Made by a program: the position numbers and the translations under genes
Shown: piece by piece, positions 8,230-49,588 of the stretch
Position numbering within the stretch: the stretch's first letter is position 1
Layout: every line of letters begins with the position of its first letter
NCBI GenBank assembly: GCA_028821605.1
Contig: JAPPFM010000058.1
Location: 186,280-250,279, forward strand
Direction: 5' to 3'
Source: Candidatus Poribacteria bacterium
GTDB lineage: Bacteria; Poribacteria; WGA-4E; WGA-3G
DNA: 64,000 nucleotides
The notes under the pieces: model-generated
Databases searched by the model: none
What the model saw: the letters and a program-made list of their open reading frames with translations, nothing else
Told to the model about the DNA's origin: nothing

Positions 8230-8275
8230 TGCTGTGAGTTAGTATTCCGTGAAAGCTCGTAGAAAAATATGGGGA

Positions 8276-8858: not shown

Positions 8859-9863
8859 ATGTTTATTGCCACTTACAACGCTATCTATGCCGTTGGAGAT
8901 GATGGAAATAGTGAACCCACCGTAGTCTATAAAGGCACAAACCATCAAATGGCTCCCCATGGCGCAATGGTTTCACTGTCAAAAGGTCAAGCCGTGGTGT
9001 CCGCCTTGTCGGACGGAACGCTACTGGTTTTATCGGAAGATGGTGAGAAACGAATTCCAACAGGTATAGAGGATCCAATCGCTTCGTTGCTCGTTGTTCG
9101 TGAGGATCCGTTGATACTGCTCATCGGAACGGACGAGGGTGCTTACGTCTATCGCCTCGTTGGAGAAGAAGGACCCGCTGAACGGGTCGTAGCGTTTGAC
9201 GAATTAGAATGTCGGAAAGATTGGTACACGCCGTGGGGCGGTCCCCCAGCCGTACGGACGCTTGCCAAAACCCAAGACGGTTTTTGTTACGCAGATATCC
9301 ATGTCGGCAGTATCATGCGTTCCAACGATGAAGGAATTTCTTGGGAACCCGTCACGCCGGAACTTCATAAAGATGTCCATCAGGTCACTACCTGTCCTGT
9401 AGACGATAATCGAGTTTATGCAAACACGCAAAACGGTGTTTATGTCAGTACCGACCGTGGGCACTCTTGGGAGAATCGGATTGAAGGTTTACCGCGTCGC
9501 TACGGCACCGCTATCGCTGTACATCCAACAGACCCCGACCTACTGATCGCCACAGTCCAAAACGGACCGAGAGGGGGTGGGGCTTGGCTCTGTCGCTCAG
9601 AGAATGGCGGTGCGACGTGGACACAACTCAACGATCAACTCACAGAATCCACCGATCGGATTAGCACGGGCTGTATTGCTTTCACATCCGATGGAACAGC
9701 GTGGGCAGTTATTGGAAAGACACTTTACATCGGGCAGGATCAAGCCACGGATTGGCGGACTTTCTGGACAGCCCCCGAATACGATGGTGAGTACCAGCCA
9801 CCGTCCGACGAGTACTCTCTGTCTCATCTCCTTGAGTATCCGATCCAAATCCTTGCTGCTTAG
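8859..9863 (+). CDS. Asp-box (BNR) beta-propeller protein
   Basis: 334 residues with at least three Asp-box motifs of the S-x-D-x-G-x-x-W type: SNDEGISWEPV, STDRGHSWENR and SENGGATWTQL. These mark the blades of a sialidase/sortilin-like beta-propeller. The remaining blades are more divergent (GTDEGAYVYRL, DGTLLVLSEDG). Asp-boxes are structural, so no catalytic role follows. There is no signal peptide, suggesting a cytosolic product. A strong ribosome-binding site (AAAAGGAGGAAAC) precedes the ATG. The VOC-family gene follows after 36 bases and the two may be co-transcribed. Confidence 0.8.
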   Translation: MFIATYNAIYAVGDDGNSEPTVVYKGTNHQMAPHGAMVSLSKGQAVVSALSDGTLLVLSEDGEKRIPTGIEDPIASLLVVREDPLILLIGTDEGAYVYRLVGEEGPAERVVAFDELECRKDWYTPWGGPPAVRTLAKTQDGFCYADIHVGSIMRSNDEGISWEPVTPELHKDVHQVTTCPVDDNRVYANTQNGVYVSTDRGHSWENRIEGLPRRYGTAIAVHPTDPDLLIATVQNGPRGGGAWLCRSENGGATWTQLNDQLTESTDRISTGCIAFTSDGTAWAVIGKTLYIGQDQATDWRTFWTAPEYDGEYQPPSDEYSLSHLLEYPIQILAA

Positions 9864-9899
9864 CACAACATTTGGGTTGGTGTTGAGGAGATAGAAACT

Positions 9900-10265
9900 A
9901 TGAATGTATTAGGTATCGACTTTACTTTCTTTGCGGTGAGCGATATGCAAAAATCGCTCACCTTTTATCGTGACCTGCTTGGGATGCCACTGGCATGTTT
10001 AGTGCATGAAGACACATGGGCAGAATTCGAGATAAATCCGGGCACACTGGTATTAGGACAAGGTTACGATTTCACACATCCGGGTGGAGGAACGGTCGCG
10101 CTTGCTGTCAAGAACGCGAAGGCTACCTTAGAAGAATTAGAACAAGCAGGAATTCACGCCCATTCGCCTTTAGGTGAATCCGCTGTATGCTTTTGGGCGA
10201 TTATTGAAGACCCTGATGGCAATCGTGTGATCCTCCACCAGCGAAAGGATGGAACAGTCGGTTGA
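9900..10265 (+). CDS. VOC-superfamily (glyoxalase/bleomycin-resistance-like) protein
   Basis: 121 residues with the paired beta-alpha-beta-beta-beta layout of the vicinal oxygen chelate fold. The first half is IDFTFFAVSDMQKSLTFYRDLLGM and the second contains VALAVKNAKATLEELEQAGI and ends EDPDGNRVILHQ. The FYRDLLGM and DPDGN motifs are diagnostic. Members bind a metal and handle small molecules (lyases, dioxygenases, drug-binding proteins); the substrate here is unknown. GGAGATAG precedes the ATG. Confidence 0.85.
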   Translation: MNVLGIDFTFFAVSDMQKSLTFYRDLLGMPLACLVHEDTWAEFEINPGTLVLGQGYDFTHPGGGTVALAVKNAKATLEELEQAGIHAHSPLGESAVCFWAIIEDPDGNRVILHQRKDGTVG

Positions 10266-24733: not shown

Positions 24734-24817
24734 TAGGGTCTTTGTCGAAAACGAAAATCGTTGTGTCTCCAAAATTTGCTTTTTTCAAAATGGAGAATAC
24801 GCTATAATAATTAAGTG

Positions 24818-24902
24818 ACATTATGGGGTGCTCTTACCTTGCTTAAGAGCTGAGAAAACACCCTTTGAACCTGATCTGGGTCATGCCAGCGTAGGGAAAT
24901 AT
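24818..24902 (+). promoter_or_regulatory. TPP riboswitch (THI element)
   Basis: The universally conserved thi-box elements are present in order: GGGGTG at 24825, GCTGAGAAAACACCC at 24849-24863, then ACCTGATCTGGGTCATGCCA and GCGTAGGGAA. Pairing of GGGTG with CACCC closes the aptamer arm. A -10-like TATAAT lies at 24803-24808 just upstream. Thiamine pyrophosphate binding is expected to lower expression of the downstream transport and thiO-thiS genes. No clear terminator or anti-terminator follows because a repeat element occupies the space. Confidence 0.93.
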
Positions 24903-24904
24903 GA

Positions 24905-25046
24905 AAGAATAGTAGTCGGTAGTCAGTTAACAGTTTTGACCAACAACTCGCGCCTTAGCAAAAGTATCTGTAGACGAGTTGTTGGTCAAAGTTACAAGAG
25001 GTGTCTTCTAAACAAGAATTTCTTAACTGAAAACTGAAAACTATCA
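24905..25046. mobile_element. CAGTTATC-type element, copy 4, inserted after the TPP riboswitch
   Basis: The outer ends are GTAGTCAGTTAACAGTTTT and TTAACTGAAAACTGAAAACT. Inside is a perfect 15-bp inverted repeat, TTGACCAACAACTCG and CGAGTTGTTGGTCAA, with a 24-base loop. It lies exactly between the aptamer and the permease gene and would fold in the leader RNA. Confidence 0.75.
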
Positions 25047-26969: not shown

Positions 26970-28106
26970 ATGGGAAATAAAAAAATTCTCATCATCGGTG
27001 GCGGTGTAATCGGACTCGGTATCGGGTGGCAGCTTGCGAAATCGGGGATCTCCGTCACCATTTACGACCGTGCTGAAGCTGGACGCGCTGCCTCTTGGGC
27101 AGCCGCTGGGATGCTCGCGCCTCTTGCTGAAGCACATAACGAAGAACCGGAACTGCTTAAACTCGGCTGTCAAAGTTTGGAACGCTATCCGCAATGGGTT
27201 CGTGAATTAGAAGCGGATGCTGAGATGTCCGTCGGTTATCGGGTGGAAGGCACGCTTATCGTCGGATTAGAACCTGATGATACACATCAACTGCGGCATC
27301 TCCACGTTTCACAACAAGACTTAGGATTAGATGTCGAGTGGTTGACGGGACGCGCAGCGCGTGAAATCGAACCCGCACTTTCACCTCGCGTGACCGCAGC
27401 CCTCCATTGCGCCACCGATCATCAAGTTGATAACCGACGCATGGTAAAAGCACTCCAGCGTTCATTTCAGGCTTGTGGAGGCATGCTGCATGAAAATAGT
27501 ACCATTGAGAGCATCGTTATAGAAAACGGAGTCGCAACGGGTGTTCAAACACAAGAGGGCTTTCAGGCAGCAGATACCCTGATTCTCGCAGCAGGATGCT
27601 GGTCCGCACAGATTGAAGGATTGCCAGATACCCTCCGTCCGCCGGTGCGTCCTGTGAAAGGACAGATGTTGGCATTACAGATGGAAGCCGGTATTACGGT
27701 TAAAAATGTCATCCGCACTGTCAGGGCAAGGTATCCGACATCAGTATATTTGGTGCCGAGAACCGATGGTAGACTTATCGTCGGTGCAACAAGTGAGGAG
27801 ATGGGGTTTGACACACGCTTAACGGCTGGTGGCACATTTGAGCTGCTCCGCGGCGCGTGGGAAGTAGTGCCGGGCATCTATGAACTACCCCTTCTGGAGA
27901 CATGGACAGGCTTACGTCCCGGCAGTAGAGACAATGCCCCCATACTCGGCGAAACGCCTATTGAGAATCTGATATACGCAACAGGACACTATCGCAACGG
28001 CATCTTACTCACACCCATTACGGCTTATGAAATAGCCAAACTGATTCTGACGGGTAAGACCTCAGAGATAATTGCCCCGTTCCAGTTAGACCGATTTTTA
28101 AAGTAA
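26970..28106 (+). CDS. thiO: Glycine oxidase ThiO, copy 2
   Basis: 378 residues, colinear with copy 1 without any insertion or deletion. It keeps the N-terminal GGGVIGLGIGWQLAK FAD motif, the AASWAAAGML block and the C-terminal GHYRNGILLTP block. Same reaction: glycine to iminoacetate for thiazole synthesis. This copy lies downstream of the TPP riboswitch and binding-protein gene and 38 bases before thiS, so it is the one probably under thiamine control. Substitutions relative to copy 1 are scattered rather than clustered, suggesting an older duplication with both copies still under selection. Confidence 0.9.
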   Translation: MGNKKILIIGGGVIGLGIGWQLAKSGISVTIYDRAEAGRAASWAAAGMLAPLAEAHNEEPELLKLGCQSLERYPQWVRELEADAEMSVGYRVEGTLIVGLEPDDTHQLRHLHVSQQDLGLDVEWLTGRAAREIEPALSPRVTAALHCATDHQVDNRRMVKALQRSFQACGGMLHENSTIESIVIENGVATGVQTQEGFQAADTLILAAGCWSAQIEGLPDTLRPPVRPVKGQMLALQMEAGITVKNVIRTVRARYPTSVYLVPRTDGRLIVGATSEEMGFDTRLTAGGTFELLRGAWEVVPGIYELPLLETWTGLRPGSRDNAPILGETPIENLIYATGHYRNGILLTPITAYEIAKLILTGKTSEIIAPFQLDRFLK

Positions 28107-28800: not shown

Positions 28801-31521
28801 ATGGCAATAGGCAGAATAAAAACATGGAACGATGAAAGGGGCACAGGCTGGATTGAGAATAATGCAGGAGGAGACAATGTTTTCTTGCACCATTCGGAGG
28901 TTTCTCCAGCGGATAGAAAGCTCCTCGCTAATGGAACACTTGTTGAATTTGACATACAAAATTCAAAACATGCCCCCGGAAGACTTGATGCACATAATTT
29001 TCGTTTGTCCGAATCGCCGGATGAAGAGAACTCCAACACTCCTATAGCACAAAAAGTCCTAGAGTCCGAACCGGCAACTCACTTCCACAATCCATACACC
29101 TTTGTTTCTACACCTCCGCGTGAAAAGGCAATAAAACACGGTGGGTTTGCCGGTGATTACGATCCACTGAAAAATGACCTTGACCATGCATCCCTCAAAT
29201 CAAATCTGTGGACTGGACACATTCCAATCAAGCTGACTACAGTTACTCCCTTAGTTTTGCTTAAAGGTGATGGCGAGGATTGTCCAACAGACATACACCA
29301 AATCTACGATGTCCTCGACTATTTGCCAGAAACCTCCTTGCGTGGTATGCTCCGCAGCGCGTATGAGGTGGTGACGAACTCGCGCTATAATTGTTTCGGT
29401 AACGAGCATCAAGAAAGACTTGCATATCGCATGGACTCGCGGGATGCGCCGCAGCTTATTCCAGCAACTATTAAAAATGGCGATGAATCCGGGCAATTAG
29501 TCGCACAGTTGTGCACAGGCACTAGTGTTCCCACAGAGGGCGGCCCCAAAAAAGATGGAACCGATGAAGAGGGTGCAATGTATGCTGCTATGTTTGATCC
29601 CTATGATACAAAACTTTATACAGTATACGATTCAAAATACACGCCCCGAACAGGTCATGAGGTGTGGGCACAAATCATTCTTTGTCAACATAGATACAAA
29701 AATTACCGGTACTGGAAAGCACTTAAGGTTTGGTGGACAGATCAACATCCTGATAAACCTACCGAGCAAGAATTAATAGAAATACCTGAATCAGAAGAAT
29801 GGACCTCTCTATATACAGACATCAATAATCCGATTGAGCGAGTTGTCAAAGGGCATGTTTTGATTACGAATAAAAATATAAAAGGCAAACATGATGAGCG
29901 TATTTTCTTCTATGACAATCCTGATTTGAATCTATCTGACAAAGATGTAACCCATCTCAAAACGGATTGGGAAAAACTCATCAAGAACTATCGCGATGCA
30001 CATTCCGAAAAGGAATTATTCAAGCGTCAAAATGCAAATAACCAACCTTGGAAATGGACAGGGAACGATCCTGGTAAAACGGCTTGGTCACCGCACTTGT
30101 ATCAAGACAGTAAACACCGGTCTATTTGGCATAATAATGATCCACATGGGCGTGTCACTGATCATGACGCAATTGAATTGAAGCATGGTGATTTGGTATA
30201 TGCCCGTTGCGAGTTCAAGAATGGAAAGATTTCAAAGATTACGCACCTTTTACCTGTCTCTATCTCCCGCGTGTTATACGATCTAAGTCCACGAGATCGT
30301 CTGCCCTATTCTCTGAGACCCGCGAAACGAAGATCCGAATTATCTCCCGCGGACCGCTTGTTCGGATGGGTTGCCCAACCTGATGGCGAAGATTCAGGCC
30401 AAGACAATCAAGCAAAAGCGCAGGGTCAAGAGCGTGATCCTTACAAGGGGCGTATACGAGTCATCTGTGACGATGGCCCACGTCCTAATATCATCAAACG
30501 TTTTGAGGATGACCAGACCCTACCTTTGACGATTCTCGGACAACCGAAACCTGAACAATCAAGATTCTACGTTGCCAAAGATGACATAGGCACACCTGAA
30601 AAAGATAATATTAGGAAGAAGGATGCTGGCTATAGCAAAGGCAAGGGTTTACGAGGGCGCAAGCAATACTGGCACCATAAAGGATTGGAAGCTCATAAGC
30701 AGGCAGTCAAACCTGCGCGAGATTATTGGAAAGCGACCGTTGAGGATCGAACACAGGTCAAGCGTGATGGTCGGTACCAGGAATACCGCCGTCCGGATGT
30801 ACGTCCGGATAAAGATAATCAAAGTGGTTGGCAGCAAAAGGATTCGCAAAACCGTTCAATCACAGGTTGGATCAAACCTGGCACCGAATTTAAGGTATTC
30901 GTGTATGTGCAGAATCTACAAGACGCGGAAATCGGTGCGTTGCTTTGGTTATTGTCTCGCCCTGAAGGTCATTACTTTAGGATCGGATACGGCAAACCTT
31001 TAGGATTTGGTAGTATGAGAATGGAAATTGATTGTCCTGACAAACAACCCTTACCAATCGGCACCCATGAGGATTGGAAAAAATATTACACTACTTTTGA
31101 CACCTCTCCGCTTGAAAAACTGACGTTGAATAATGAACAGCAGGCCAACTGTCTCCAAAAATTTCAAGAGAGTATGTTGAAAGCATACGGTGAGGATTCA
31201 GATAATGATACTACAGAAGAGAATGGTGGCGAAGGTAAAACATCTGATTTGACATCTTTTAATCAACTTGCAAGCGTCCAATCCAGTTTCGTGAATACAC
31301 CTGAAGATCTGGAACAAAGTTTTGAAAACTTGTCCTTTATCAAAGAATTTCTACAAATACTAAAAGGACCAGAAACAGACTTACCCATTCACTATCCACG
31401 GACAGATCAGAAACAAGATCCGGAAGGCAAGAATTTTGAGTGGTTTAGAGATAACGAAAGTAGAGGTAAACTTGCACTTCCAGCGGCTACGGATGATAAA
31501 GGGATCCCTTACAAGCCATAA
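28801..31521 (+). CDS. Type III-D Cas7 with insertion (TIGR03986 family), fused to an N-terminal cold-shock domain
   Basis: 906 residues. Residues 1-68 read as a cold-shock domain: GRIKTWNDERGTGWIE (RNP1-like G-T-G-W-I at 14-18) and NVFLHHSEV (RNP2-like at 27-31). After a linker, residue 97 on matches the TIGR03986 RAMP opening NPYTFVSTPPREKAI, then SLRGMLRSAYE, the later SPADRLFGWVAQ, and a glycine-rich loop GYGKPLGFGSMRM near residue 733. In III-Dv-type complexes this protein is the Cas7 subunit with a large insertion in the crRNA-bound backbone. Weak Shine-Dalgarno AAGG before the ATG. It heads the operon, 36 bases before the CARF gene. The added cold-shock domain could bind crRNA, target RNA or transcripts. 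Confidence 0.85.
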   Translation: MAIGRIKTWNDERGTGWIENNAGGDNVFLHHSEVSPADRKLLANGTLVEFDIQNSKHAPGRLDAHNFRLSESPDEENSNTPIAQKVLESEPATHFHNPYTFVSTPPREKAIKHGGFAGDYDPLKNDLDHASLKSNLWTGHIPIKLTTVTPLVLLKGDGEDCPTDIHQIYDVLDYLPETSLRGMLRSAYEVVTNSRYNCFGNEHQERLAYRMDSRDAPQLIPATIKNGDESGQLVAQLCTGTSVPTEGGPKKDGTDEEGAMYAAMFDPYDTKLYTVYDSKYTPRTGHEVWAQIILCQHRYKNYRYWKALKVWWTDQHPDKPTEQELIEIPESEEWTSLYTDINNPIERVVKGHVLITNKNIKGKHDERIFFYDNPDLNLSDKDVTHLKTDWEKLIKNYRDAHSEKELFKRQNANNQPWKWTGNDPGKTAWSPHLYQDSKHRSIWHNNDPHGRVTDHDAIELKHGDLVYARCEFKNGKISKITHLLPVSISRVLYDLSPRDRLPYSLRPAKRRSELSPADRLFGWVAQPDGEDSGQDNQAKAQGQERDPYKGRIRVICDDGPRPNIIKRFEDDQTLPLTILGQPKPEQSRFYVAKDDIGTPEKDNIRKKDAGYSKGKGLRGRKQYWHHKGLEAHKQAVKPARDYWKATVEDRTQVKRDGRYQEYRRPDVRPDKDNQSGWQQKDSQNRSITGWIKPGTEFKVFVYVQNLQDAEIGALLWLLSRPEGHYFRIGYGKPLGFGSMRMEIDCPDKQPLPIGTHEDWKKYYTTFDTSPLEKLTLNNEQQANCLQKFQESMLKAYGEDSDNDTTEENGGEGKTSDLTSFNQLASVQSSFVNTPEDLEQSFENLSFIKEFLQILKGPETDLPIHYPRTDQKQDPEGKNFEWFRDNESRGKLALPAATDDKGIPYKP

Positions 31522-31557: not shown

Positions 31558-32991
31558 ATGGCCAGAAAAATACATCTCGTTTTGACAGTCGGAAAGAACC
31601 CCCTACCTGTTTGGGTGGCTTGGGATCGTTTAACAAATCATTGGACAAATGAAGGACACGAAGTTGCTGTCCAATTCGTGCACACGCCAGGGTCAGAAGA
31701 CGAAAAGGAGCGTCTGAAGGAATATTGTACAACACATGGAGTAACTGTCCGTGATGACATTGAAGTGGACGCTCGTAGTCCCGATAGGGCAGATATTGAA
31801 AATCAAATTCGTAAAGCCTTGCCCCCAGATTTTACTGATCTTCACATTCACTACACCGGCGGTACCCAGGCGATGGGCGTTGCAACGGTTTATGCCATGA
31901 TGGTAGTTCAACATAATTTACTCGGACAGCAGACAATTGCGGTAGATGCGTCGTACTTAGATCCGGGACGCGGCATTCTGCCAGCAACCAGTTCTTCACC
32001 AGCAATTGTCAGTTGGAACGACGACTTATTAATAGCCGATACCCGTGTGAACATTACTCCTAATCTCAAGGAAATTGCCACACTCAACGGATTCCGAGTA
32101 GGACCTTTTGATTACTATAAAATTGACGGAACGGCTGACAAGCGTTTGGCCCCTCAAATCCCCACGGATGAAAGATTGCAAGCTGGTGCAGTGGTGCTTG
32201 ATAATTATCGTGGGATAGTTGAGCAGGAATTTAGAGACAACTTTCCTAAAGGTAAACCCTGGTCGGACACTTTCCATAAGAATCCTGACGAGCCTGAGAG
32301 TGATGATTTTTTTCACCCTAATGATGGTGGGTGTTTCGTACTTCAGGCTTCTGATTCCAAATGGGAAAATAACATACTACCGGCTGTCAATGAAGCATAT
32401 CCATCTTGTCCATGGAATTGCTCAAAAAAGGAGTTGCCTTACCCTGCTGCGGGAGGTGCTGCGGATCAGCAAAGAGACCTTGAAGAGATGGATAAGTTTT
32501 TCACCAGTCACTGGCTTGAGTACGCTGCGTATGCTGCCTTTAAGAATGTCCTTAGAAGTATCGAAGCTAGGAGCCCGGAACGCGCAAACTTTGAACTCTA
32601 CCATAATGTTTACGTGACACCATATTTGAACGGTGTCGCATCTCGAGACTTTGAACTTGATGTCGTAGCAGTGTTGGGTTACCAAGTAGTTGTTGTCTCG
32701 TGTAGCATAACGTCCAATAAATCGGATATTAAACAGAAAGCTATGGAAGTATATCATCGAGCGAAGCAGCTCGGTGGTGATGCAGCACGCGCTGTGGTCC
32801 TGTGTGTTGCATCCTCTCAAGATGCTAGACTAGTCGAAGATGAATTGAAGGACGAAACTGGAATCGAGCGGCCTTTACAAGTTTGGGGAAGACAACAAGC
32901 AAGAGGCGGCGGATGGGGACCTGTTCCTAATATGGATAACCTATGTGCCAAGTTCCAGAGTCTTTGCCAGGATGACCTACATTGGGCTTGA
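31558..32991 (+). CDS. CARF-domain CRISPR ancillary protein, Card1/Can2-like, with altered nuclease motif
   Basis: 477 residues. The N-terminal CARF Rossmann-like half carries HIHYTGGTQAMGVATV at residues 96-111, the ligand-loop motif of Card1/DUF1887-type proteins that bind cyclic tetra-adenylate. The C-terminal half follows the PD-(D/E)XK plan: HWLEYAAYAAF near 318, ELDV with Asp 368, then the next strand VVVVSCSI at 377-384, where the expected E-x-K reads S381-C382-S383. A Lys-rich stretch follows at 388-394. Strong GGAGG precedes the ATG. Lying between two effector genes, it is probably switched on by Cas10 cyclic oligoadenylate, but its cleavage chemistry may be lost or altered. Confidence 0.85.
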   Translation: MARKIHLVLTVGKNPLPVWVAWDRLTNHWTNEGHEVAVQFVHTPGSEDEKERLKEYCTTHGVTVRDDIEVDARSPDRADIENQIRKALPPDFTDLHIHYTGGTQAMGVATVYAMMVVQHNLLGQQTIAVDASYLDPGRGILPATSSSPAIVSWNDDLLIADTRVNITPNLKEIATLNGFRVGPFDYYKIDGTADKRLAPQIPTDERLQAGAVVLDNYRGIVEQEFRDNFPKGKPWSDTFHKNPDEPESDDFFHPNDGGCFVLQASDSKWENNILPAVNEAYPSCPWNCSKKELPYPAAGGAADQQRDLEEMDKFFTSHWLEYAAYAAFKNVLRSIEARSPERANFELYHNVYVTPYLNGVASRDFELDVVAVLGYQVVVVSCSITSNKSDIKQKAMEVYHRAKQLGGDAARAVVLCVASSQDARLVEDELKDETGIERPLQVWGRQQARGGGWGPVPNMDNLCAKFQSLCQDDLHWA

Positions 32992-33009: not shown

Positions 33010-34662
33010 ATGTCAACGTCTTGCTATACAGGTCAGTGCGTTGTGGTCTTCGGCACCGCGAGTCTTCAGCAATACATTTTTCAGAGTAACCGCCTCAAAG
33101 AGAATATTGGTGCGTCCTATCTTGCCAAACACTGGCTCGGTGAGGCACTGGTTACAGTTACAGGAGCTGATGCAACCAAGTGGAAAAAGTACGAGAAAAA
33201 TCCTTGGAGAGACCAACCTGAAAATTCTATGGCCAAAGACAAACCTATCAATGTTATTTACATTGGTGGTGGGAACGCTGCGTTGCTATGCGAAAATAAG
33301 TGTATTGCCAAAAAAGCAGTCAAAAAGTGGAGCCGCAAAGTGCTTAAGAATGCCCCCGGACTCCGGGTAGTTGTCGGTTATGGTGAAGTTTGCGAAGACA
33401 AATCGCTGGCGGAGGCTTATCGTGCTGGATTAGATGCGTTAAATCATTGTGAAGAAGCACTCCCATTTGGCAGCACGTTGCATAGTTTACCCGTCGTTCG
33501 CCCATGCATTAGTACCGGACTTCCAGCGAGTGAGTCTCGGACTGAACCAGATGAGGGAAATCAATGGATATCACAATCAGCAGCGAGTAAACGCGATCAA
33601 GTGAGTTTCCGGGGAGAGCCCGGAGCCGCCCAAGAGCACATTAAGGATAAATTTCCATCGGTTTTGGAACAAACAGAGCGTTTGCCAAAACTAAATCGTT
33701 TTGCCATAAAACTTGATGAGGAATTGGGAGGTCGTAAAGGAGAATCGCACATTGCTGTCGTTCATGCCGACGGTAACGGGATGGGTGATCTACTCAATCA
33801 AGTGATAGATAAAGAAGATCAGAGAGACAATGAATTTTTACATAACCTTCGGGCATTTTCAGCCTCTACGTCATATCTCTCCCATAAAGCCTTAGAGGAT
33901 ACTTTATTATACTTCAAGGATTTTCTACCATTGAAGAAATCGCTAAATAATCCTGACTATATATTTCCGCTTCGACCAATCGTGTTCGGCGGTGACGACT
34001 TGACTTTTGTCTGTGATGGCCGCGTGGGATTACATCTGACTGCTTATTATCTGCAGCAATTTGCCAACGGTAAAATCAACTTCTGCGGTGATAAAATATC
34101 TGTTGATGCCTGTGCGGGGGTTGCTATTGTGCATACAAAGTTTCCGTTTGCGCGGGCTTACAGTTTTGCGGACGATCTTTGTGGAAAGGCTAAGTTACAC
34201 CGCCGTTATGAAGCCAATTTAAAAGGAAGTTGGCTGGAATTTCAGATTATTCAAGAAGGTGCTACGCGATCCATTACCGATCTCAGAGAAACACAATACC
34301 ACACTGGTAAAGGACAAATACTGCCTCAGCGTCCCTATGAAGTGCCGACAGCATGGGAAGATTTCGTCAAGCTCTTGCAAAAGTTTAAGACAGAATGGCC
34401 CCGCAGTCGAGCCAAAGGACTTTTGCAAGTACTCACGCAAGGACCTACCGCGACCAAACATTTCGTTAGTGGTGCAAAGTGGAATGAGGACGGAATTCCA
34501 AGTGTTGAAAATACCCCTGACATTGTCTGTACTACCGGTTGGACCAGTGAAACCCCCGGAGCCACTACACCCTATTTCGACCCCCTTGAAGCACTTGACT
34601 TTTATCTGGAAGAGCTATTTCCAAAGGAGAAGGACAATAATAAAAAGGAGAACGGAGAATGA
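33010..34662 (+). CDS. cas10: Cas10, HD-less, with intact GGDD cyclase motif
   Basis: 550 residues. The chain opens directly with the first palm-like segment (VVVFGTASLQQYIFQSNRLKENIGASYLA); there is no N-terminal HD nuclease domain, so ssDNA cleavage is not expected. The first palm has a degenerate GGGNA at 87-91. The second palm has HADGNGMGD at 252-260 and the catalytic GGDD at 327-330, the metal-binding site that makes cyclic oligoadenylate from ATP on target binding. The C-terminal part is helical. It lies 18 bases after the CARF gene, its likely receiver, and its stop overlaps the start of the next gene (ATGA). Confidence 0.92.
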   Translation: MSTSCYTGQCVVVFGTASLQQYIFQSNRLKENIGASYLAKHWLGEALVTVTGADATKWKKYEKNPWRDQPENSMAKDKPINVIYIGGGNAALLCENKCIAKKAVKKWSRKVLKNAPGLRVVVGYGEVCEDKSLAEAYRAGLDALNHCEEALPFGSTLHSLPVVRPCISTGLPASESRTEPDEGNQWISQSAASKRDQVSFRGEPGAAQEHIKDKFPSVLEQTERLPKLNRFAIKLDEELGGRKGESHIAVVHADGNGMGDLLNQVIDKEDQRDNEFLHNLRAFSASTSYLSHKALEDTLLYFKDFLPLKKSLNNPDYIFPLRPIVFGGDDLTFVCDGRVGLHLTAYYLQQFANGKINFCGDKISVDACAGVAIVHTKFPFARAYSFADDLCGKAKLHRRYEANLKGSWLEFQIIQEGATRSITDLRETQYHTGKGQILPQRPYEVPTAWEDFVKLLQKFKTEWPRSRAKGLLQVLTQGPTATKHFVSGAKWNEDGIPSVENTPDIVCTTGWTSETPGATTPYFDPLEALDFYLEELFPKEKDNNKKENGE

Positions 34663-37190: not shown

Positions 37191-38714
37191 ATGGAAAACA
37201 CGACTACCACCTCCACATCTACAGATAATGATGTTGTTGTGCGTCGGTTATATGCACGTGGCAAATGGAAACTTGATAGCGTAGCACACTTCGGTAGCCA
37301 TGAAACCGGTGTTGCGGACATGTGTCTCCTACAAGATGCTAATGGAAAACCCTTTATCCCAGGGGCATCCGTCGCCGGTGCCGCGCGAAGTTTCCTCGCT
37401 CGGAAGTGTTTAATTTGGACACAATATAAAGAAGGACTTGCAACAGAACCACGAGAACTTAAAGATTTCTTTGGTGGCGCGGATAAAGAGGATACCATGA
37501 GTCCCTTAATCGTTTCGGATGCCGCATGTGTATCGGAGAAAGTGAACAGAACAATCCGCGATGGTGTTAGCATAAATATAAAGTCGGGCACTGCAAAAAC
37601 AGGAGCGAAATATGATGTGGAGGTCGCTGAACGTGGAACTGAGTTTGAATTGTGTTTGGTATGTATTATACGTAGTGGAGATGACATAGACGGTATCAAA
37701 GACGGAGCAACAAAACCCAATTTAGAGGACATGTTTAGCGCACTGCTAAGAGCGTTTCAAGATGGCGATATCCGCCTGGGCGCGCGCACTCGGCGCGGTT
37801 ACGGGCGCGGCAAAGTAGAATCTTGGGAGATACGCGATTTGCAGATGGACAATCAAGAGGATGTCATGGCGTGGCTACGCGATGATCCGTGGTCCCAACC
37901 TAATAGCGACTTAGAACCAGAACCATTACAAACCGACCAGAGATGCTACTTCCGCATTGAGGCGGACTTTGAACTCCGCTCATCACTGTTAATCCGGAGT
38001 GTATCTGGAGAACCAGAAGACCCTGATATGGTCCATTTACAGTCTGATGGCAAACCTGTTATCCCCGGCACCTCATTTGCGGGTGCGTTCCGACAGCGCG
38101 CGACGCTAATCGCAAACACAATTGGCTTCCCTGAAAAAGCAGTGGAAAAGATGTTTGGGTTTGTCCATAAAAAAAATAGCAACAACTCACAGGAACCCAC
38201 TTCGCAGGCAAGCCGAGTATTAATTGAGGAACGTCTGGTAAAGAATGTAGAAATGCGATGGCAGCATCGCGTTGCGATTGATCGTTTTACCGGTGGCAGT
38301 TTACAAAGTGCCTTGTTTGATGAGAAACCGGTTTATCCCCTCTCACTCAAAGAACCCGAGCCGAATATACGATTGAGACTTGCATTAGAAGAATCAGAAA
38401 AGGCAGAGATAGGTTTGCTACTCCTCACATTACGTGACTTCTGGTATGGGCACACCGCCATCGGTGGAGAGACAAGCAACGGACGCGGTACACTCCAAGG
38501 CATCAAAGCGCAATTGAAATATAAATATTCAGACTCCCCTGTTCCTAAAGTTTGGAGATTGTCGCACGACAACGATAACAAACGTATGACAATTGAAAGT
38601 GATGATGACGGATTCCTCCAATCCTGCGTTACAGATGCACAAAACTACTCTAATCGCCCTTCAGGATCGCGGCGACCTAAGAAGAATGGCGGGGAGGATT
38701 CCGATGCCGAATAG
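37191..38714 (+). CDS. Double Cas7 (Cas7-2x) subunit of a type III-D effector
   Basis: 507 residues holding two Csm3-like RAMP domains, about 18-215 and 252-450. Each has a catalytic-type Asp (D43 in TGVADMCLL; D279 or D277 in EDPDMVHL), an IPG-A/T-S-x-AGA-x-R block, a matching thumb segment (RDGVSINIKSGTA and HRVAIDRFTGGS) and a glycine-rich end (TRRGYGRGKVE; GGETSNGRGTL). In a type III backbone each Cas7 cleaves target RNA at six-base steps. The tandem fusion is the arrangement of III-Dv Cas7-2x. AAGGAGG lies just upstream of the ATG. It overlaps csx19 by 11 bases. Confidence 0.88.
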   Translation: MENTTTTSTSTDNDVVVRRLYARGKWKLDSVAHFGSHETGVADMCLLQDANGKPFIPGASVAGAARSFLARKCLIWTQYKEGLATEPRELKDFFGGADKEDTMSPLIVSDAACVSEKVNRTIRDGVSINIKSGTAKTGAKYDVEVAERGTEFELCLVCIIRSGDDIDGIKDGATKPNLEDMFSALLRAFQDGDIRLGARTRRGYGRGKVESWEIRDLQMDNQEDVMAWLRDDPWSQPNSDLEPEPLQTDQRCYFRIEADFELRSSLLIRSVSGEPEDPDMVHLQSDGKPVIPGTSFAGAFRQRATLIANTIGFPEKAVEKMFGFVHKKNSNNSQEPTSQASRVLIEERLVKNVEMRWQHRVAIDRFTGGSLQSALFDEKPVYPLSLKEPEPNIRLRLALEESEKAEIGLLLLTLRDFWYGHTAIGGETSNGRGTLQGIKAQLKYKYSDSPVPKVWRLSHDNDNKRMTIESDDDGFLQSCVTDAQNYSNRPSGSRRPKKNGGEDSDAE

Positions 38715-39279
38715 AACGTCTATAGAACTCAATAAGTCGTGGATTTGTGAACGCTTATGTCATGTAACCAACATAGAAACTAAAAAAGTTGCGTGGGTTT
38801 TGGTGCAGGAACCAGGGTTTATCGGATTTGGTGTAGCGTCTCCAAATGAAATCTGCTGGCCCCCATATCTTAAAAAATTGGACTGGGAATTGGTGAGCGA
38901 TCTACGACTGTTCGGTGAAAAAGGGGAATGGCACATTTGGCGCGATTGGGATGGAAAGCATTATGCCCGGTTGCTGGAAGTGAAAAATATCAACGACGCA
39001 CTCACAGAATACCACGTCCTGTGGGGCACCGACGTTAAATGCACTCAGACACACTGGGTAAAATTGCGAGAAGAGCGAGGGGCAGAAATCTGGATACCAC
39101 CGTTGAAGGATGTAAAATTGACAGAAAAGGACTTGCCCCTACGGCTAGAACTCAAACAAATAGTAGACTATGATCCTAAATACCATTTGGCAGGGATTGT
39201 TGATGCCGCCTTTGTAAGTCTTGTTCGCAAGTCCTGCAAAGAACCATTGTTACCAGATCTTTCCCTACTCTGCTCATAG
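38704..39279 (+). CDS. csx19: Csx19 (TIGR03984 family), type III-D subunit
   Basis: 191 residues from the ATG at 38704, chosen because GGGGAGG lies seven bases upstream; the frame is open further back only within the preceding gene. The block LRLFGEKGEWHIWRDWDGKHYARLLEV, the YHVLWGTDV strand and the late LRLELKQIVDYDP fit TIGR03984/Csx19, a type III-D-specific protein that packs against Cas10. Its presence, with Csx10-like Cas5, places the locus in subtype III-D. Stop and the start of cas6 are two bases apart. Confidence 0.82.
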   Translation: MPNRTSIELNKSWICERLCHVTNIETKKVAWVLVQEPGFIGFGVASPNEICWPPYLKKLDWELVSDLRLFGEKGEWHIWRDWDGKHYARLLEVKNINDALTEYHVLWGTDVKCTQTHWVKLREERGAEIWIPPLKDVKLTEKDLPLRLELKQIVDYDPKYHLAGIVDAAFVSLVRKSCKEPLLPDLSLLCS

Positions 39280-39281: not shown

Positions 39282-40250
39282 ATGCTCCAAAACTTCCGCT
39301 TCGCACGCTACCGATTCACCTACACCGTCCAAGAACCGCTGAAGATGCCACAACACAAAGGCAACGTCTTCCGCAGCCGATTCGGATACATCCTGCGCCA
39401 TATCGCTTGCAGCGGCGATGAAAACCGATGCGAGACGAGTTGTCAGTCTCCAGAACGGTGTGTGTATTCCAAATGCTTTGAAACACCAGTACCAGACAAT
39501 AGTCCAATGTTACGCGGTCAGCCGTATGCCCCGCATCCCTTCGTCCTTGAACCACCGCGTACCGGGAAATTGGACTATGCACCGGGTGACACGTTCGCTT
39601 GCAACATGGTACTTATCGGCGAGGCAATCAACCTATTGCCGTGGATTGTGCTAACCTTTCAGGAGATGGGTAAGCGACGCATCGGGCTACAAGGCAAACG
39701 CGGGCAGTGTCAACTTGATAAAGTCGAAAGCTTGTCCGCACACGGTCACGACCAAGCACAGACAATCTTCACCGCAGAAACCGAGATGTTGACAGATGAT
39801 GGACTGATTCTCCGGTTTGACGATGTGATGCCCGCTGCGCCCCACGTCATGGACGAGATTGAACTGGCGTTTCTCACACCCACGAGTATCAAGGTCAACG
39901 GGAAGTGGACGAGCAATTTGACGTTTGAACACCTCATCCGTAATCTGCTCCGCCGCATCCGTTTCCTGAGTTATTTCCACTGCGGCAAAGACCTGGACGT
40001 GGATGCCCACGGTTTAATTGCGGCATCTACCTCGGTCGCGCATACCTCTCGCCTGGATTGGCTCAGAAAGGATCGGTATTCTTACCGTGCGGAGAAATCC
40101 GTGCCTATGGGTGGGTTTATCGGGAAAATCCGTTTTTCAGGAAAATTAGAGCCGTTTTTGCCGTTCATCTATCTTGGCGAGTATCTGCACATCGGGCATC
40201 ATACGGCGTTTGGACATGGACAGTATCGTATAAATTGCAATAAATCATAG
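39282..40250 (+). CDS. cas6: Cas6 pre-crRNA endoribonuclease
   Basis: 322 residues with two RAMP-type ferredoxin folds. Landmarks are FRFARYRFTYTVQEPL at the start, KGNVFRSRFGYILRHIACSG, a cysteine-rich stretch C-x-T-x-C...C-V-Y-S-K-C at about 47-62 usual in this Cas6 branch, and the C-terminal glycine-rich LHIGHHTAFGHGQYRI. Cas6 cuts the repeat RNA at the base of its hairpin, leaving an 8-base ATTGAAAC-type 5' handle. The His-rich glycine loop and upstream His residues are candidate catalytic groups. It ends the effector operon. Confidence 0.9.
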   Translation: MLQNFRFARYRFTYTVQEPLKMPQHKGNVFRSRFGYILRHIACSGDENRCETSCQSPERCVYSKCFETPVPDNSPMLRGQPYAPHPFVLEPPRTGKLDYAPGDTFACNMVLIGEAINLLPWIVLTFQEMGKRRIGLQGKRGQCQLDKVESLSAHGHDQAQTIFTAETEMLTDDGLILRFDDVMPAAPHVMDEIELAFLTPTSIKVNGKWTSNLTFEHLIRNLLRRIRFLSYFHCGKDLDVDAHGLIAASTSVAHTSRLDWLRKDRYSYRAEKSVPMGGFIGKIRFSGKLEPFLPFIYLGEYLHIGHHTAFGHGQYRINCNKS

Positions 40251-44016: not shown

Positions 44017-45405
44017 ATGCTTGATTACACACCGAGCACGTCTCTCACAACGCAACTCTATCAACCTGAAACATTACATGCCGCCTGGCGAAAAGTCCGC
44101 GCTAACAAAGGCGGACCCGGCAGCGATGGCATTACCATCCAACAGTTTGAGGCAAACCTTACCAAACATCTCCGTCACCTCTCGCGTGAACTCGCGGAAG
44201 AACGCTACTATCCGCTCCCGATTCAAAAGTTCACCATGAAAAAATCAAACGGCAGCACAAGAGAACTCTCTGTGCTGACGCTAAAAGATCGGATTGTTCA
44301 ACGCGCCGTTTGCGATCTCATCTCGCCGATCTATGAAGCCAAATTTCTTGAGTGCAGCTTCGCCTACCGTCCCAATCGCGGGGTGCCACATGCTATAGCA
44401 CAGGTCGCCGCTATCCGGGCAGAAGGGCACGAATGGGTTGTTCATGCGGATATTGAGAAATTCTTTGACAGAATGGATACGCACATTCTGATGCGCTTTC
44501 TCCGAGCATCCCTGAAAGAACCAGCGATCATCCGGCTGATTCAGATGTGGTTAGATATGGGTGGTATTTTGCAACCGCCCAAACTTCCGACGTGGAGCAT
44601 CCATATCGAAAACACAGTCCACCAGATCGGTGGAGGCGTTGAGGACGTGATTAATCAACTCCTGCATCGCACGCCAAATTTTGGGCATTACAACGAACAT
44701 CAAAACGCACTGACAGCAGACGAATGGGAACTTGACGAGTCTGAAATTACGACAAGAACTGGCACCTTGACACAAACCGGAAAGGAGATATTGACGAACT
44801 TAGGGCGAGACGGACTTCTTCTGCTCCTTGCGAATGCCAAACGGTTATGGAAACCTCTCGCCACCAAGCAGCTGCTTATCGTTGCCCCTCTGGTTGTGGC
44901 AGCACTCGCTGCACCGACCGTAGGCAGTCTTGTGAAGGAGCGGATGAGCCGCCCACGGAAAATCGGTATTATACAGGGGTCCCCCCTCTCACCGGTGTTA
45001 GCGAACATCTATCTTCATCCATTTGACAAAGCGATGACGCGAGCAGGCATACGGCTCGTGCGATACGCGGACGACCTGCTCCTCCTCTGCCGAAGCGAAA
45101 GCAGAGCACACCACGCACTTGAATATGCACAAAAACGACTCGCAACACTCAAATTAGAATTGAATCCAAAAAAGACGCAAATCGCACGTTTCAATACAGG
45201 GATTGAATTCCTTGGACACATCTTTGACGCGGATGGGTGTTACCAACCCATCCCCGATTCGCGGACAAGAATCTTGCAGGACCAGATACAGCACGTCCTC
45301 AAGAAAGGAACAACCCAAGTTGCACGCTCTGGACGACATGTAACGCAACACGGCAAAAACATCGCCACCCAGTTCGGTGAACGTTTGAAAAAACGCGATA
45401 AATAA
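44017..45405 (+). CDS. CRISPR-associated reverse transcriptase, unfused, with a long palm insertion
   Basis: 462 residues of the group-II-intron-like RT class. Motifs in order: AWRKVRANKGGPGSDGIT (RT1, about 23-40), YYPLPIQKFTMKKSNG and LTLKDRIVQRAV (RT2), CSFAYRPNRG (RT3), catalytic Asp 145 in HADIEKFFDRMD, GIIQGSPLSPVLANIYL (RT4, 317-333), catalytic YADD at 350-353, and LNPKKTQIARF plus IEFLGHIF at the end. Between Asp 145 and QGSP there are 175 residues instead of roughly 70. The extra 105-125 residues (about 185-310) include a hydrophobic run at 285-304. No maturase or endonuclease domain follows. GCGGAGG precedes the ATG. cas1 is the next gene, implying RNA-templated spacer acquisition. 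Confidence 0.88.
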   Translation: MLDYTPSTSLTTQLYQPETLHAAWRKVRANKGGPGSDGITIQQFEANLTKHLRHLSRELAEERYYPLPIQKFTMKKSNGSTRELSVLTLKDRIVQRAVCDLISPIYEAKFLECSFAYRPNRGVPHAIAQVAAIRAEGHEWVVHADIEKFFDRMDTHILMRFLRASLKEPAIIRLIQMWLDMGGILQPPKLPTWSIHIENTVHQIGGGVEDVINQLLHRTPNFGHYNEHQNALTADEWELDESEITTRTGTLTQTGKEILTNLGRDGLLLLLANAKRLWKPLATKQLLIVAPLVVAALAAPTVGSLVKERMSRPRKIGIIQGSPLSPVLANIYLHPFDKAMTRAGIRLVRYADDLLLLCRSESRAHHALEYAQKRLATLKLELNPKKTQIARFNTGIEFLGHIFDADGCYQPIPDSRTRILQDQIQHVLKKGTTQVARSGRHVTQHGKNIATQFGERLKKRDK

Positions 45406-45600: not shown

Positions 45601-46593
45601 ATGGCAATTCTCTACATCACCCAACAAGGCGCAATGCTCCATAAATCTGGAAACCAGATCATCGTAAAAAAAGAGCGTGAGGTACTCCAAGAAATCCCGA
45701 TTGTCCAACTCGACGAAGTCGTCATCTTCGGCAATGGACACATCACAACCCCAACGATGGGATACTTGCTGAGTAAAAATATCCCGGTCTCCTTCCTCTC
45801 TTCACGCGGAAAATACAAGGGAAAACTTCAACCGCCCTACGCCAAGGACACGCTGATTCGCCAGCAGCAATATGCCGTTGCGTCGGATCCGCCACAGTGC
45901 CTGGAATTAGCGAAATGTTTTGTCCGAGGCAAACTCACAAACGCTATGCGGTTCTGCCAACGGCAACGCACCCAAAATGACGAGGTGAAATCCGCAATAC
46001 TTTCCACGCGTCAAACTTTGGAAAAACTCGAAGGTGCTAAGAATTTGGAATCGCTTCTCGGATACGAAGGCGCAGGTGCCGCCGCGTATTATCAGGCGTT
46101 TCGACAATTTCTGGCACGCGACTGGGGGTTTACCACTCGCCAATTTCGACCGCCACCGGATCCAATTAACGCCATGCTCTCACTCGGCTACACGCTCCTA
46201 CACAACCATGTTTACGCCTTCACCAATGTCGTCGGTTTAGACCCATACTGCGGATATTTCCATCAACCCAAGCATGGACATGCCGCATTGGCATCGGATC
46301 TAATGGAGGAGTTCCGTCAGATTATTGTTGATGGATACGTGCTTTCACTTGTCAACAACAACCGGATTAAACCCAAAGACTTTGAAAAGACCAATAACGG
46401 TATCCGTTTCACCAAAGAAGCGTTGGATCGATTCCTCACTGGCTATTATGGGCGGATGCAGCGGACGTTTCAACACCCCACGCGTAACGAGAAAACCACC
46501 CATCTGCGTTGTATTGAACTTCAGGTGAGGCATCTGGCTCGTGTGATTAGAGGCAAAGAAGCGGTCTATAAACCCTTTCTTGTTCGCGCTTAG
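45601..46593 (+). CDS. cas1: Cas1 integrase
   Basis: 330 residues. The N-terminal beta domain (MAILYITQQGAMLHKSGNQI, then VQLDEVVIFGNGHITTPTM) is followed by the helical catalytic domain. Metal ligands are in place: Glu in LLGYEGAGAAAYYQ (about 160), His in GYFHQPKHGHAALASDLMEEFR (about 225) and the Asp/Glu of ASDLMEEFR. Cas1 with Cas2 inserts spacers at the leader end of the array. A very strong AGGAGGT lies upstream of the ATG. Unlike many type III RT systems, the RT is a separate gene rather than a fusion with Cas1. Confidence 0.95.
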   Translation: MAILYITQQGAMLHKSGNQIIVKKEREVLQEIPIVQLDEVVIFGNGHITTPTMGYLLSKNIPVSFLSSRGKYKGKLQPPYAKDTLIRQQQYAVASDPPQCLELAKCFVRGKLTNAMRFCQRQRTQNDEVKSAILSTRQTLEKLEGAKNLESLLGYEGAGAAAYYQAFRQFLARDWGFTTRQFRPPPDPINAMLSLGYTLLHNHVYAFTNVVGLDPYCGYFHQPKHGHAALASDLMEEFRQIIVDGYVLSLVNNNRIKPKDFEKTNNGIRFTKEALDRFLTGYYGRMQRTFQHPTRNEKTTHLRCIELQVRHLARVIRGKEAVYKPFLVRA

Positions 46594-47015: not shown

Positions 47016-47251
47016 TATGTAAATACAAACACGATTCGCCGATCAGGTATGGACACGGCTTAAATTGCGTAGGAACCCAGATGGTGCCTTGCTTTCAAGC
47101 CTCTTTTGCTGAAAAATCGCGTTTGGGTCAGTGTTTACAAGGGTTTGTGGGATTTTTGGGTCGAATTTTTAAGAAAAAAATGCCCCGTGCAGTTCGTGTT
47201 TGGTTTTGGGGTGTACGGAGCCACGTCCTGACTAGGTCGAAAATGGGGTCT

Positions 47252-49588
47252 GTTCACACGTGCTTTCCCGTTTGAAGGGAATTGAAACGTTTCCCTTCCT
47301 TTTTACCAAGATGGTCTTCGCTGAGGTTCACACGTGCTTTCCCGTTTGAAGGGAATTGAAACTTAAGAGTTTGATGAGCCGTTGTTGTTCGGTTCGGTGT
47401 TCACACGTGCTTTCCCGTTTGAAGGGAATTGAAACTTAACGACCGGTGGCGTGTAAGTGTCGAGATTATTAGTTCACACGTGCTTTCCCGTTTGAAGGGA
47501 ATTGAAACATAAAGAAAACGGAGGCGATTGCCATCCCTGCTCCTCCGACGTTCACACGTGCTTTCCCGTTTGAAGGGAATTGAAACAGGAAACTCCTTTT
47601 ATTAATTTACAATCGTTTTTAGGTTCACACGTGCTTTCCCGTTTGAAGGGAATTGAAACGCTGTCGGTCCGTCGTTATTCGGTCGGTCGGTTATGTGTTC
47701 ACACGTGCTTTCCCGTTTGAAGGGAATTGAAACTCCACGTCTGTCTTTCGATCACATCCGATTGTTGGTTCACACGTGCTTTCCCGTTTGAAGGGAATTG
47801 AAACGGTCAGTGCGCCGCCAGAGGCGACATACGCGGTATCATAGCGAGTTCACACGTGCTTTCCCGTTTGAAGGGAATTGAAACGCACTACGCACAGAAA
47901 CACGACGATTGGGATCGTGTTCACACGTGCTTTCCCGTTTGAAGGGAATTGAAACTATCAACCGTTGCGGATTCTTCAGCGTCCATGATTTGTTCACACG
48001 TGCTTTCCCGTTTGAAGGGAATTGAAACAGTGGCATTGTGTGTTGGAAAAGGCTTTTACTTGTGTTCACACGTGCTTTCCCGTTTGAAGGGAATTGAAAC
48101 TTTGTGAGATGTGGTATTGATCTTCTAATTTTGGATGACATACGTTCACACGTGCTTTCCCGTTTGAAGGGAATTGAAACGTGGTTGCTGATAGGTATTG
48201 CGAGCAGCCTCTTCCTTGGTTCACACGTGCTTTCCCGTTTGAAGGGAATTGAAACTTATCTCTGCCAACATCGCTGTTCGCTCTAATTCTGGTTCACACG
48301 TGCTTTCCCGTTTGAAGGGAATTGAAACTTTACTATACTTAAAATAACAATAACTTAACTTCGCGAAAAGTTCACACGTGCTTTCCCGTTTGAAGGGAAT
48401 TGAAACAACGTGCCATAATGTTTAAAACCTCCATTATGGTTGATTGGTGTTCACACGTGCTTTCCCGTTTGAAGGGAATTGAAACCTTGTTAACGATTAT
48501 GCTCGGTTCCCCGGTTTTTTCGTTCACACGTGCTTTCCCGTTTGAAGGGAATTGAAACCCATGACGGCCAATCTTTTTCAAATCTTTAGATTTGAAGTTC
48601 ACACGTGCTTTCCCGTTTGAAGGGAATTGAAACTAATATTTTATGACTGACAAGAGGCGCACTGCGTCCGTTCACACGTGCTTTCCCGTTTGAAGGGAAT
48701 TGAAACAGTTCTACCGCATACCTCCCGCACACGCTTGAGGTGTTCACACGTGCTTTCCCGTTTGAAGGGAATTGAAACCCGCCTTATCAATCGCCTTCTG
48801 CGCCTCCTGAAACTGTTCACACGTGCTTTCCCGTTTGAAGGGAATTGAAACCTGTTTGCGCCTGGGGGCTCTGCCATTGCCGAAAATGGTTCACACGTGC
48901 TTTCCCGTTTGAAGGGAATTGAAACGTTCTTCCTACTTGGCGCTTGTAGTGATACGGTGGTTCACACGTGCTTTCCCGTTTGAAGGGAATTGAAACCGTC
49001 GTCGTTGTTTTTGGTTTCGCTTGACTCTTTGTTTTTTGGTTCACACGTGCTTTCCCGTTTGAAGGGAATTGAAACCACTACAGTTCAAACATACCCGCCT
49101 TTTGCCAAGGTATGTTCACACGTGCTTTCCCGTTTGAAGGGAATTGAAACAGGATATGGAACGATCCGTTCCCAGCAGATTCAGCGTTCACACGTGCTTT
49201 CCCGTTTGAAGGGAATTGAAACACAGCAACCCCGGCAACGCCTATCGGTCCGATTAAAACAGTTCACACGTGCTTTCCCGTTTGAAGGGAATTGAAACGT
49301 GTTAGCCATATGAGTTTGTCACTGTTATTATAATAGTTCACACGTGCTTTCCCGTTTGAAGGGAATTGAAACTGATATCTGCCATGAGATCTGCCATGGA
49401 CGGGTCGGTTCACACGTGCTTTCCCGTTTGAAGGGAATTGAAACCTCGATCGATTTTTTGTGGATACTGCAGCAAGATTGTTCACACGTGCTTTCCCGTT
49501 TGAAGGGAATTGAAACACTTCAACATTGATAACAACAAAAACAACATTCGCGTTCACACGTGCTTTCCCGTTTGAAGGGAATTGGGGA
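47252..49588 (+). CRISPR. CRISPR array, 32 repeats of 37 bp and 31 spacers
   Basis: Repeats begin GTTCACACGTGCTTTCCCGT and end AAGGGAATTGAAAC. By position I count 32, at 47252, 47326, 47399, 47472, 47550 and so on to 49552. All appear identical except the last, which keeps 33 bases and then reads GGGG in place of AAAC. Spacers are 34-43 bases. TTCCC and GGGAA in the repeat can form a 5-bp stem with a 7-base loop, the likely Cas6 site, leaving an ATTGAAAC handle. The degenerate last repeat and the leader upstream fix the direction as plus strand. No spacer target is identified here. Confidence 0.98.

What the first reader, a model, noticed from the sequence alone, without database searches (positions are those of the whole stretch)
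28801..29004. Cold-shock domain fused to the N-terminus of a CRISPR Cas7 subunit
Seen: residues 1-68 match the cold-shock fold with RNP1-like and RNP2-like motifs, followed by a linker and the TIGR03986 opening. Known: cold-shock domains bind single-stranded RNA or DNA and act as chaperones. Inferred: it may hold the crRNA end, melt structured target RNA, or tether the complex to nascent transcripts. I am not certain this fusion is undescribed, but it is not part of the standard subtype definition.
Basis: partly seen in the sequence, partly recalled or inferred. Interest (0 to 1): 0.8.

Follow-up and report, generated by a model that had tools for sequence, protein, structure and literature searches.

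The report
RNA-binding plug-ins on a CRISPR subunit
One protein of an RNA-targeting CRISPR immune complex in a sponge-associated bacterium carries an extra cold-shock (RNA-binding) domain, and close relatives carry a completely different RNA-binding domain (an RRM borrowed from the cell's own genes) in exactly the same place, which suggests that the complex needs a flexible hand for single-stranded RNA there.

Summary
Residues 1-71 of the 906-aa ORF at 28801-31521 are a genuine cold-shock domain (CSD), joined by a disordered linker to a TIGR03986 Cas7-insertion subunit. The subunit heads a III-D2 (III-Dv) operon in a Candidatus Poribacteria genome.

The fusion is one case of a wider pattern. 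I read the N-termini of 73 related proteins. Most carry a conserved ~70-aa domain without a Pfam name; it corresponds to the 'uncharacterized', unresolved N-terminus of the Synechocystis III-Dv structure and is predicted to be a small OB-like barrel. Only one clade differs (support 100/100): the window, other Poribacteria and two Latescibacterota. Among its members the slot holds a CSD (3) or an unrelated RRM (4) on cores about 46-62% identical, and the subunit has moved to the head of the operon. The fused RRM is up to 95% identical to the same genome's stand-alone RRM protein and is under strong purifying selection. A more distant homologue acquired a CSD independently at its C-terminus (90% identical to its host's Csp).

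Best reading: a tethered single-stranded-RNA-binding module near the crRNA 3'/seed end that captures or opens target RNA. Binding and mechanism are inferred, not shown.

The parts
28801..29013 (+). cold-shock domain, residues 1-71 of the Cas7-insertion protein
   Evidence: PF00313 E=2.9e-9; AF2 five-stranded barrel, pLDDT 81-91; CspC TM 0.88
29014..29082 (+). disordered linker, residues 72-94 (low confidence continues to about residue 130)
   Evidence: pLDDT below 50 over residues 72-130
29083..31518 (+). Cas7-insertion core (TIGR03986), starts at the conserved (F)HNPYxF motif
   Evidence: TIGR03986 E=3.7e-77; 8s9t_E E=9.5e-103 by sequence
31558..32991 (+). CARF-PDDEXK (Can2/Card1-like, Csx1) signalling effector
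   Evidence: PADLOC Csx1 E=4e-47, CARF4-PDDEXK 1e-38; Pfam Card1 below cut-off
33010..34662 (+). Cas10 of type III-D with GGDD motif
   Evidence: PADLOC Cas10d E=8e-113; palm domain PF22335
34659..37154 (+). Cas7-Cas5-Cas11 fusion (Csx10 family)
   Evidence: PADLOC Cas5_IIId E=1e-97; TIGR02674 below cut-off
37191..38714 (+). Cas7-2x (double Cas7)
   Evidence: PADLOC Cas7_IIId E=2e-115; two RAMP stretches
38593..39279 (+). Csx19 (true start probably further downstream in this ORF)
   Evidence: TIGR03984 E=8.5e-18
39282..40250 (+). Cas6
   Evidence: PF10040 E=2e-19
44017..45405 (+). reverse transcriptase next to cas1
   Evidence: PF00078 E=2e-34
45601..46593 (+). Cas1
   Evidence: PF01867 E=1e-95
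47247..49463 (+). CRISPR array: 32 copies (30 shown, 2 more not listed), repeat GTTCACACGTGCTTTCCCGTTTGAAGGGAATTGAAAC (37 nt), spacing 71-80

Best explanation
It is a type III-D2 (III-Dv) CRISPR effector subunit, Cas7-insertion, that carries a cold-shock domain where most relatives carry another small N-terminal domain. The N-terminus of this subunit is a slot for a small, flexibly tethered domain. In most phyla it is a conserved OB-like domain without a name; in one Poribacteria/Latescibacterota clade it is a CSD or an RRM, the latter recruited from a host RNA-binding protein. Mechanism proposed: Cas7-insertion sits at the distal end of the complex and presents the crRNA 3' seed (published for Synechocystis). 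There, a flexible single-stranded-RNA-binding domain would catch and hold the unpaired target transcript 5' of the protospacer and keep it open, which raises the rate of seed pairing. Shown here: the CSD, its position, the exchange with RRM, host origin of the RRM, and selection on the RRM. Inferred: that these domains bind RNA in the complex, that the bound RNA is the target, and that this helps seed pairing.
For: CSD by profile, structure model and fold search. Same slot, unrelated folds: window and L036 cores 53% identical over 828 aa, N-termini no match; Pfam scan of 73 N-termini finds only two families, RRM (4) and CSD (3). CSD and RRM rows form one clade, 100/100. Fused RRM of L038 is 95% identical to the same genome's stand-alone RRM protein, with DNA homology starting about 8 nt before the ATG and dN/dS 0.03; fused-fused pairs 0.07-0.14. 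A more distant homologue, L124, carries a CSD at its C-terminus, 90% identical to its own Csp. The usual N-terminal domain is conserved in 50 rows, matches residues 1-89 of 8s9t_E and is predicted as a five-stranded barrel with a helix. PMC11026444: Cas7-insertion holds the exposed 3' seed; its first 112 residues are 'uncharacterized' and unresolved.
Against: No binding data. The window's CSD has lost part of the usual aromatic surface (W8 to T, F15 to T, F30 to H in Csp numbering, read by eye), and the fused CSDs evolve faster than the fused RRMs (dN/dS 0.30-0.46 against 0.07-0.14), so its binding may be weak or altered. About a dozen relatives have no domain at all, so it is not essential to every such complex. 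Two members of the clade (L041, L084) lack the ~200-aa insertion that holds the seed, yet keep the CSD or RRM. The OB-like nature of the usual domain is not secured: no Foldseek hit under E 0.001, HHalign to CSD only 30% probability.
Confidence: 0.55

Rival explanations
1. The domain acts on the guide, not the target: it binds the crRNA 3' end or repeat remnants, so that it loads, protects or measures the crRNA.
For: The subunit holds the crRNA 3' end (PMC11026444). Members that lost the insertion domain keep the CSD or RRM, as if the domain could stand in for it.
Against: crRNA in the Synechocystis complex is held without the N-terminal domain being ordered. Nothing in the sequence points to repeat-specific recognition; CSD and RRM differ in preference.
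Confidence: 0.18
2. Expression by-product: when the gene moved to the head of the operon, fusion to a host RNA-binding gene supplied a ribosome-binding site and start codon; the domain itself has no job in the complex.
For: Cas7-insertion is first in the operon in the clade (with L067 and L103) but last in 62 other loci. Host-gene homology begins about 8 nt upstream of the ATG.
Against: Strong purifying selection on the fused RRM protein sequence (dN/dS 0.03-0.14). Two different RNA-binding folds and nothing else. The C-terminal CSD of L124 cannot be explained by a start codon.
Confidence: 0.12
3. Autoregulation or tethering to cellular RNA machinery: the CSD or RRM binds the operon's own mRNA or bulk transcripts, and so controls expression or places the complex on nascent RNA.
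For: Free Csps and bacterial RRM proteins act on mRNAs (established knowledge); the fused gene is the first of the operon.
Against: In most relatives the subunit is the last gene and still has an N-terminal domain. No test here.
Confidence: 0.15

Closest known systems
Synechocystis III-Dv Cas7-insertion (8s9t_E; PMC11026444)
   Same: Same subunit and subunit set; core about 34% identical; flexible N-terminal domain of similar size on a linker
   Different: Its N-terminal domain belongs to the unnamed conserved family, without RNP motifs; gene is behind cas10, cas7-5-11, cas7-2x and csx19 there, ahead of them here
RRM-Cas7-insertion of other Poribacteria (L036, L037, L038, L084)
   Same: Orthologous cores, same operon order Cas7-insertion, card1-like, cas10, cas7-5-11, cas7-2x
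   Different: An RRM in place of the CSD, in L038 and L036 traceable to the Poribacteria's own RRM protein
Cold-shock proteins CspA/CspB/CspC/CspE
   Same: Same fold (TM 0.79-0.88) and RNP-like motifs
   Different: Part of a large effector subunit; several aromatic contact positions changed
CoCoNuT type IV restriction systems (PMC11090510)
   Same: CSD-like OB folds, with other RNA-binding domains such as YTH, at the N-terminus of an immune protein predicted to target RNA
   Different: McrBC GTPase systems without guides; no relation of the effector
Cas7-11 (III-E gRAMP)
   Same: Core resembles its last Cas7 with insertion
   Different: Single-protein effector; no CSD or RRM seen in the matches here

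Membership tests
Cold-shock domain (PF00313) | profile score above the curated cut-off | tested here: met
   37.1 bits against 27
Cold-shock domain (PF00313) | five-stranded OB barrel superposable on Csps | tested here: met
   predicted model
Cold-shock domain (PF00313) | RNP1 (KGFGFI) and RNP2 (VFVHF) with aromatic binding surface | tested here: inconclusive
   RGTGWIEN and VFLHHSEV: partly kept
Cold-shock domain (PF00313) | binds single-stranded RNA or DNA | not testable with these tools
   needs an assay
TIGR03986 / Cas7-insertion | equivalog score above cut-off | tested here: met
   261 bits against 161
TIGR03986 / Cas7-insertion | insertion within the Cas7 fold | tested here: met
   aligned over the full length with the Synechocystis protein, including the inserted region
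Subtype III-D2 (III-Dv) effector | Cas10, Cas7-5-11, Cas7-2x, Csx19, Cas7-insertion encoded together | tested here: met
Subtype III-D2 (III-Dv) effector | usual gene order with Cas7-insertion last | tested here: not met
   first in the window's operon and in its clade; last in 62 of 71 readable loci; I do not treat order as defining, since it varies
Conserved N-terminal domain of Cas7-insertion | sequence similarity to the 50-row family | tested here: not met
   the CSD is a separate Pfam family; the HHalign link is weak
CoCoNuT | McrB-type GTPase with coiled coil | not tested
   considered only as a functional parallel

The most novel reading that the evidence does not exclude
The N-terminus of III-D2 Cas7-insertion is a general RNA-capture slot, filled with interchangeable single-stranded-RNA-binding domains that are repeatedly taken from the host's own RNA chaperones (Csp, RRM protein). 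This gives type III complexes a search or unwinding module that no solved structure has shown because it is flexible.
Probability: 0.45. Interest if true: 0.75.

Novelty: new variant of a known kind. Interest (0 to 1): 0.6.

Why it matters
Type III complexes must find structured, ribosome-covered transcripts. A tethered RNA-binding module beside the seed would be a new part of how they do so, and it would give a role to the unresolved N-terminal domain of the Synechocystis complex. Exchange of a CSD for an RRM on orthologous cores is a natural experiment: it says what the slot must do (bind single-stranded RNA) without saying how. The fusions also show a CRISPR effector acquiring parts from housekeeping genes, and offer ready-made variants (CSD, RRM, none) for testing whether such a module improves RNA-guided RNA targeting.

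Tried and rejected
Viral contigs hold no relative of the core. The idea that all TIGR03986 proteins share the domain was tested and rejected. The idea that the usual N-terminal domain is simply a decayed CSD is left open: OB-like model, but no significant fold hit and only weak HHalign support (the RRM control is far weaker). More than one origin of the CSD or of the RRM inside the clade cannot be shown: one clade each is not rejected (p 0.31 and 0.067). The fused RRMs do not form one group in a short DNA tree, but 240 nt are too few. The whole-protein model is poor for much of the core (mean pLDDT 63.8), so nothing is concluded from it about where the linker leaves the complex. An artefact of assembly is unlikely: seven clade members from different assemblies carry open frames through the junction (one, L037, is cut inside the RRM by its contig start).

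Full report
Observation. The ORF 28801-31521 encodes 906 aa. Residues 4-57 match the Pfam cold-shock domain at E=2.9e-9, above the curated cut-off, and residues 98-799 match TIGR03986 at E=3.7e-77. AlphaFold2 gives five strands over residues 2-69 at pLDDT 81-91, then a stretch of very low confidence (72-130) that I read as a flexible linker. Foldseek places the N-terminal domain on CspC (TM 0.88, 1.7 A), CspE, CspA and CspB.

The system. The gene heads an operon with a CARF-PDDEXK effector, Cas10d, Cas7-5-11, Cas7-2x, Csx19 and Cas6. A reverse transcriptase, Cas1 and a 32-repeat array follow. This is the subunit set of the III-D2 (III-Dv) complex of Synechocystis, whose Cas7-insertion is the closest solved relative (8s9t_E, E=9.5e-103). 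The window lies in a 6.0-Mb genome; orthologues in congeneric genomes have the same sequences as contigs titled Candidatus Poribacteria.

What sits in the slot elsewhere. A scan of genome contigs of 84,980 species with the core alignment gave 79 loci from many phyla (166 relatives were found, the best 80 are kept), and I read every N-terminus ahead of the (F)HNPYxF motif. An iterated profile found one conserved ~70-aa domain in 50 rows (43 in the first round from 9 seeds). It has no consistent Pfam match and equals residues 1-89 of the Synechocystis protein (E=2.4e-12). The cryo-EM paper states that the first 112 residues of that subunit are an uncharacterized domain absent from the map (PMC11026444). 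AlphaFold2 on 41 rows gives strand-strand-strand-helix-strand-strand at pLDDT 86.8. Foldseek finds no significant match, but its weak list is rich in OB folds (RuvA domain I, S1, EF-P, a Csp). I call it OB-like, not proven.

The exchange. Pfam on 73 N-termini returns two families only: CSD in 3 (window, L040, L041) and RRM in 4 (L036, L037, L038, L084). All seven, with a truncated eighth row (L039), form one clade with 100/100 support; the order inside is unresolved, and neither CSD nor RRM is rejected as one clade. Window and L036 share 53% identity over 828 core residues while their N-termini do not match at all. CSD and RRM are unrelated folds whose common property is binding of single-stranded nucleic acid (established knowledge). 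In the 85 genomes searched in the phylum, six carry this subunit: one with CSD, four with RRM, one cut by its contig end.

Where the domains came from. In G013 the fused RRM is 95% identical to the same genome's own 117-aa RRM protein. DNA identity is 84% and starts about 8 nt before the ATG. Between the two, 28 synonymous but only 5 non-synonymous differences are counted (dN/dS 0.03; fused-fused pairs 0.07-0.14; simple Nei-Gojobori counts, short sequences). The fused copies sit on longer branches than the host genes in a DNA tree, so at least part of this constraint acted after fusion (inference). L124, a relative outside the clade (31% to the window, 38-40% to others), has no N-terminal domain but a canonical CSD at its C-terminus (E=1.1e-27), 90% identical to its own genome's Csp: an independent, recent fusion at the other end. 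The window's CSD is older or faster: 52% to L041, 45% to L040, 48% at best to a free Csp, 35% to the only other CSD of its genome, with dN/dS 0.30-0.46 among the fused CSDs and some aromatic positions lost.

Operon order. Cas7-insertion is last among the readable effector genes in 62 loci and first in nine: seven clade loci, L067 and L103; it is first in the window too. In the first tree L067 (Hydrogenedentota; no domain, only a Gly/Arg-rich tail) is sister to the clade, though on a long branch. A plausible course is move to the operon head, loss of the old domain, then fusion with a host RNA-binding gene (inference).

How it most likely works. In Synechocystis, Cas7-insertion holds the crRNA 3' end as an exposed six-base seed, and pairing starts there (PMC11026444). 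The target strand is antiparallel, so its unpaired 5' flank should leave the complex at this subunit (inference). A single-stranded-RNA-binding domain on a flexible linker at this place would raise the local concentration of open target RNA and keep it unfolded. I put 0.55 on this. Rivals are handling of the crRNA 3' end (0.18), regulation or tethering to cellular RNA (0.15) and an expression by-product without a role in the complex (0.12). Against the last stand the selection on the RRM and the C-terminal CSD of L124. The clade members that lost the insertion but keep the CSD or RRM (L041, L084) fit both the target-capture and the crRNA reading.

Comparison with the known. No paper in the searched open-access library links a CSD or RRM to Cas7 or TIGR03986; neither the 2025 classification, the 2024 type III survey nor the rare-system survey mentions cold-shock domains. 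Subscription journals and most preprints are not held, so this is not proof of novelty. The nearest parallel is CoCoNuT, a predicted RNA-targeting immune system with N-terminal CSD-like folds and YTH domains (PMC11090510). In the phylum of the window, a GmrSD-type restriction protein also ends in Hfq-like and CSD domains, so adding CSDs to defence proteins may be a habit of these genomes.

Verdict. Real, apparently undescribed, a new variant of a known kind. The interest lies less in the single fusion than in the exchange of unrelated RNA-binding domains in one slot. Function is not shown.

Noticed in passing
L124 (G133), 1486-3963; CSD at protein residues 760-822: Cas7-insertion with a canonical cold-shock domain fused at the C-terminus, 90% identical to the same genome's own Csp; independent of the N-terminal fusions.
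   Followed up: yes
L084 7493-9046 (G018): The CARF-nuclease gene directly behind the RRM-Cas7 gene also carries an N-terminal RRM (PF00076 E=5.5e-7), about 37% identical to the host RRM protein: a second type III component with the same kind of add-on.
   Followed up: partly
L041 4369-6180 and L084 5722-7530: Two Cas7-insertion proteins of this clade lack the ~200-aa insertion region but keep the CSD or RRM and an intact frame.
   Followed up: partly
L031 (Synechocystis pSYSA) 7665-10052, residues 1-89; alignment A2: The unresolved N-terminal domain of the III-Dv Cas7-insertion is a family conserved across many phyla with no Pfam entry; predicted OB-like.
   Followed up: yes
L130 747-1722 (G000 C59); CSD ORFs of 310-355 aa in most genomes of the family: A 325-aa protein with an N-terminal CSD and a C-terminal Hfq-like domain (below Pfam cut-off) is the only other CSD protein in the window's genome; no short free Csp was found there.
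   Followed up: partly
L206 4224-6887 (G031), L207: GmrSD-type restriction protein with C-terminal Hfq-like and cold-shock domains in L206 (Pfam); L207 looks alike by sequence only.
   Followed up: partly
window 44017-45405: The RT beside cas1 has an insertion of about 120 aa with a hydrophobic stretch (LLIVAPLVVAALAAPTVGSL) between two reverse-transcriptase blocks.
   Followed up: no
window 24814-24915: TPP riboswitch (RF00059, E=1.2e-11) upstream of genes that end in thiO (26970-28106); ordinary.
   Followed up: no
L067 5824-6000: Sister Cas7-insertion (Hydrogenedentota) without a folded N-terminal domain but with a Gly/Arg-rich tail that could also bind RNA.
   Followed up: no
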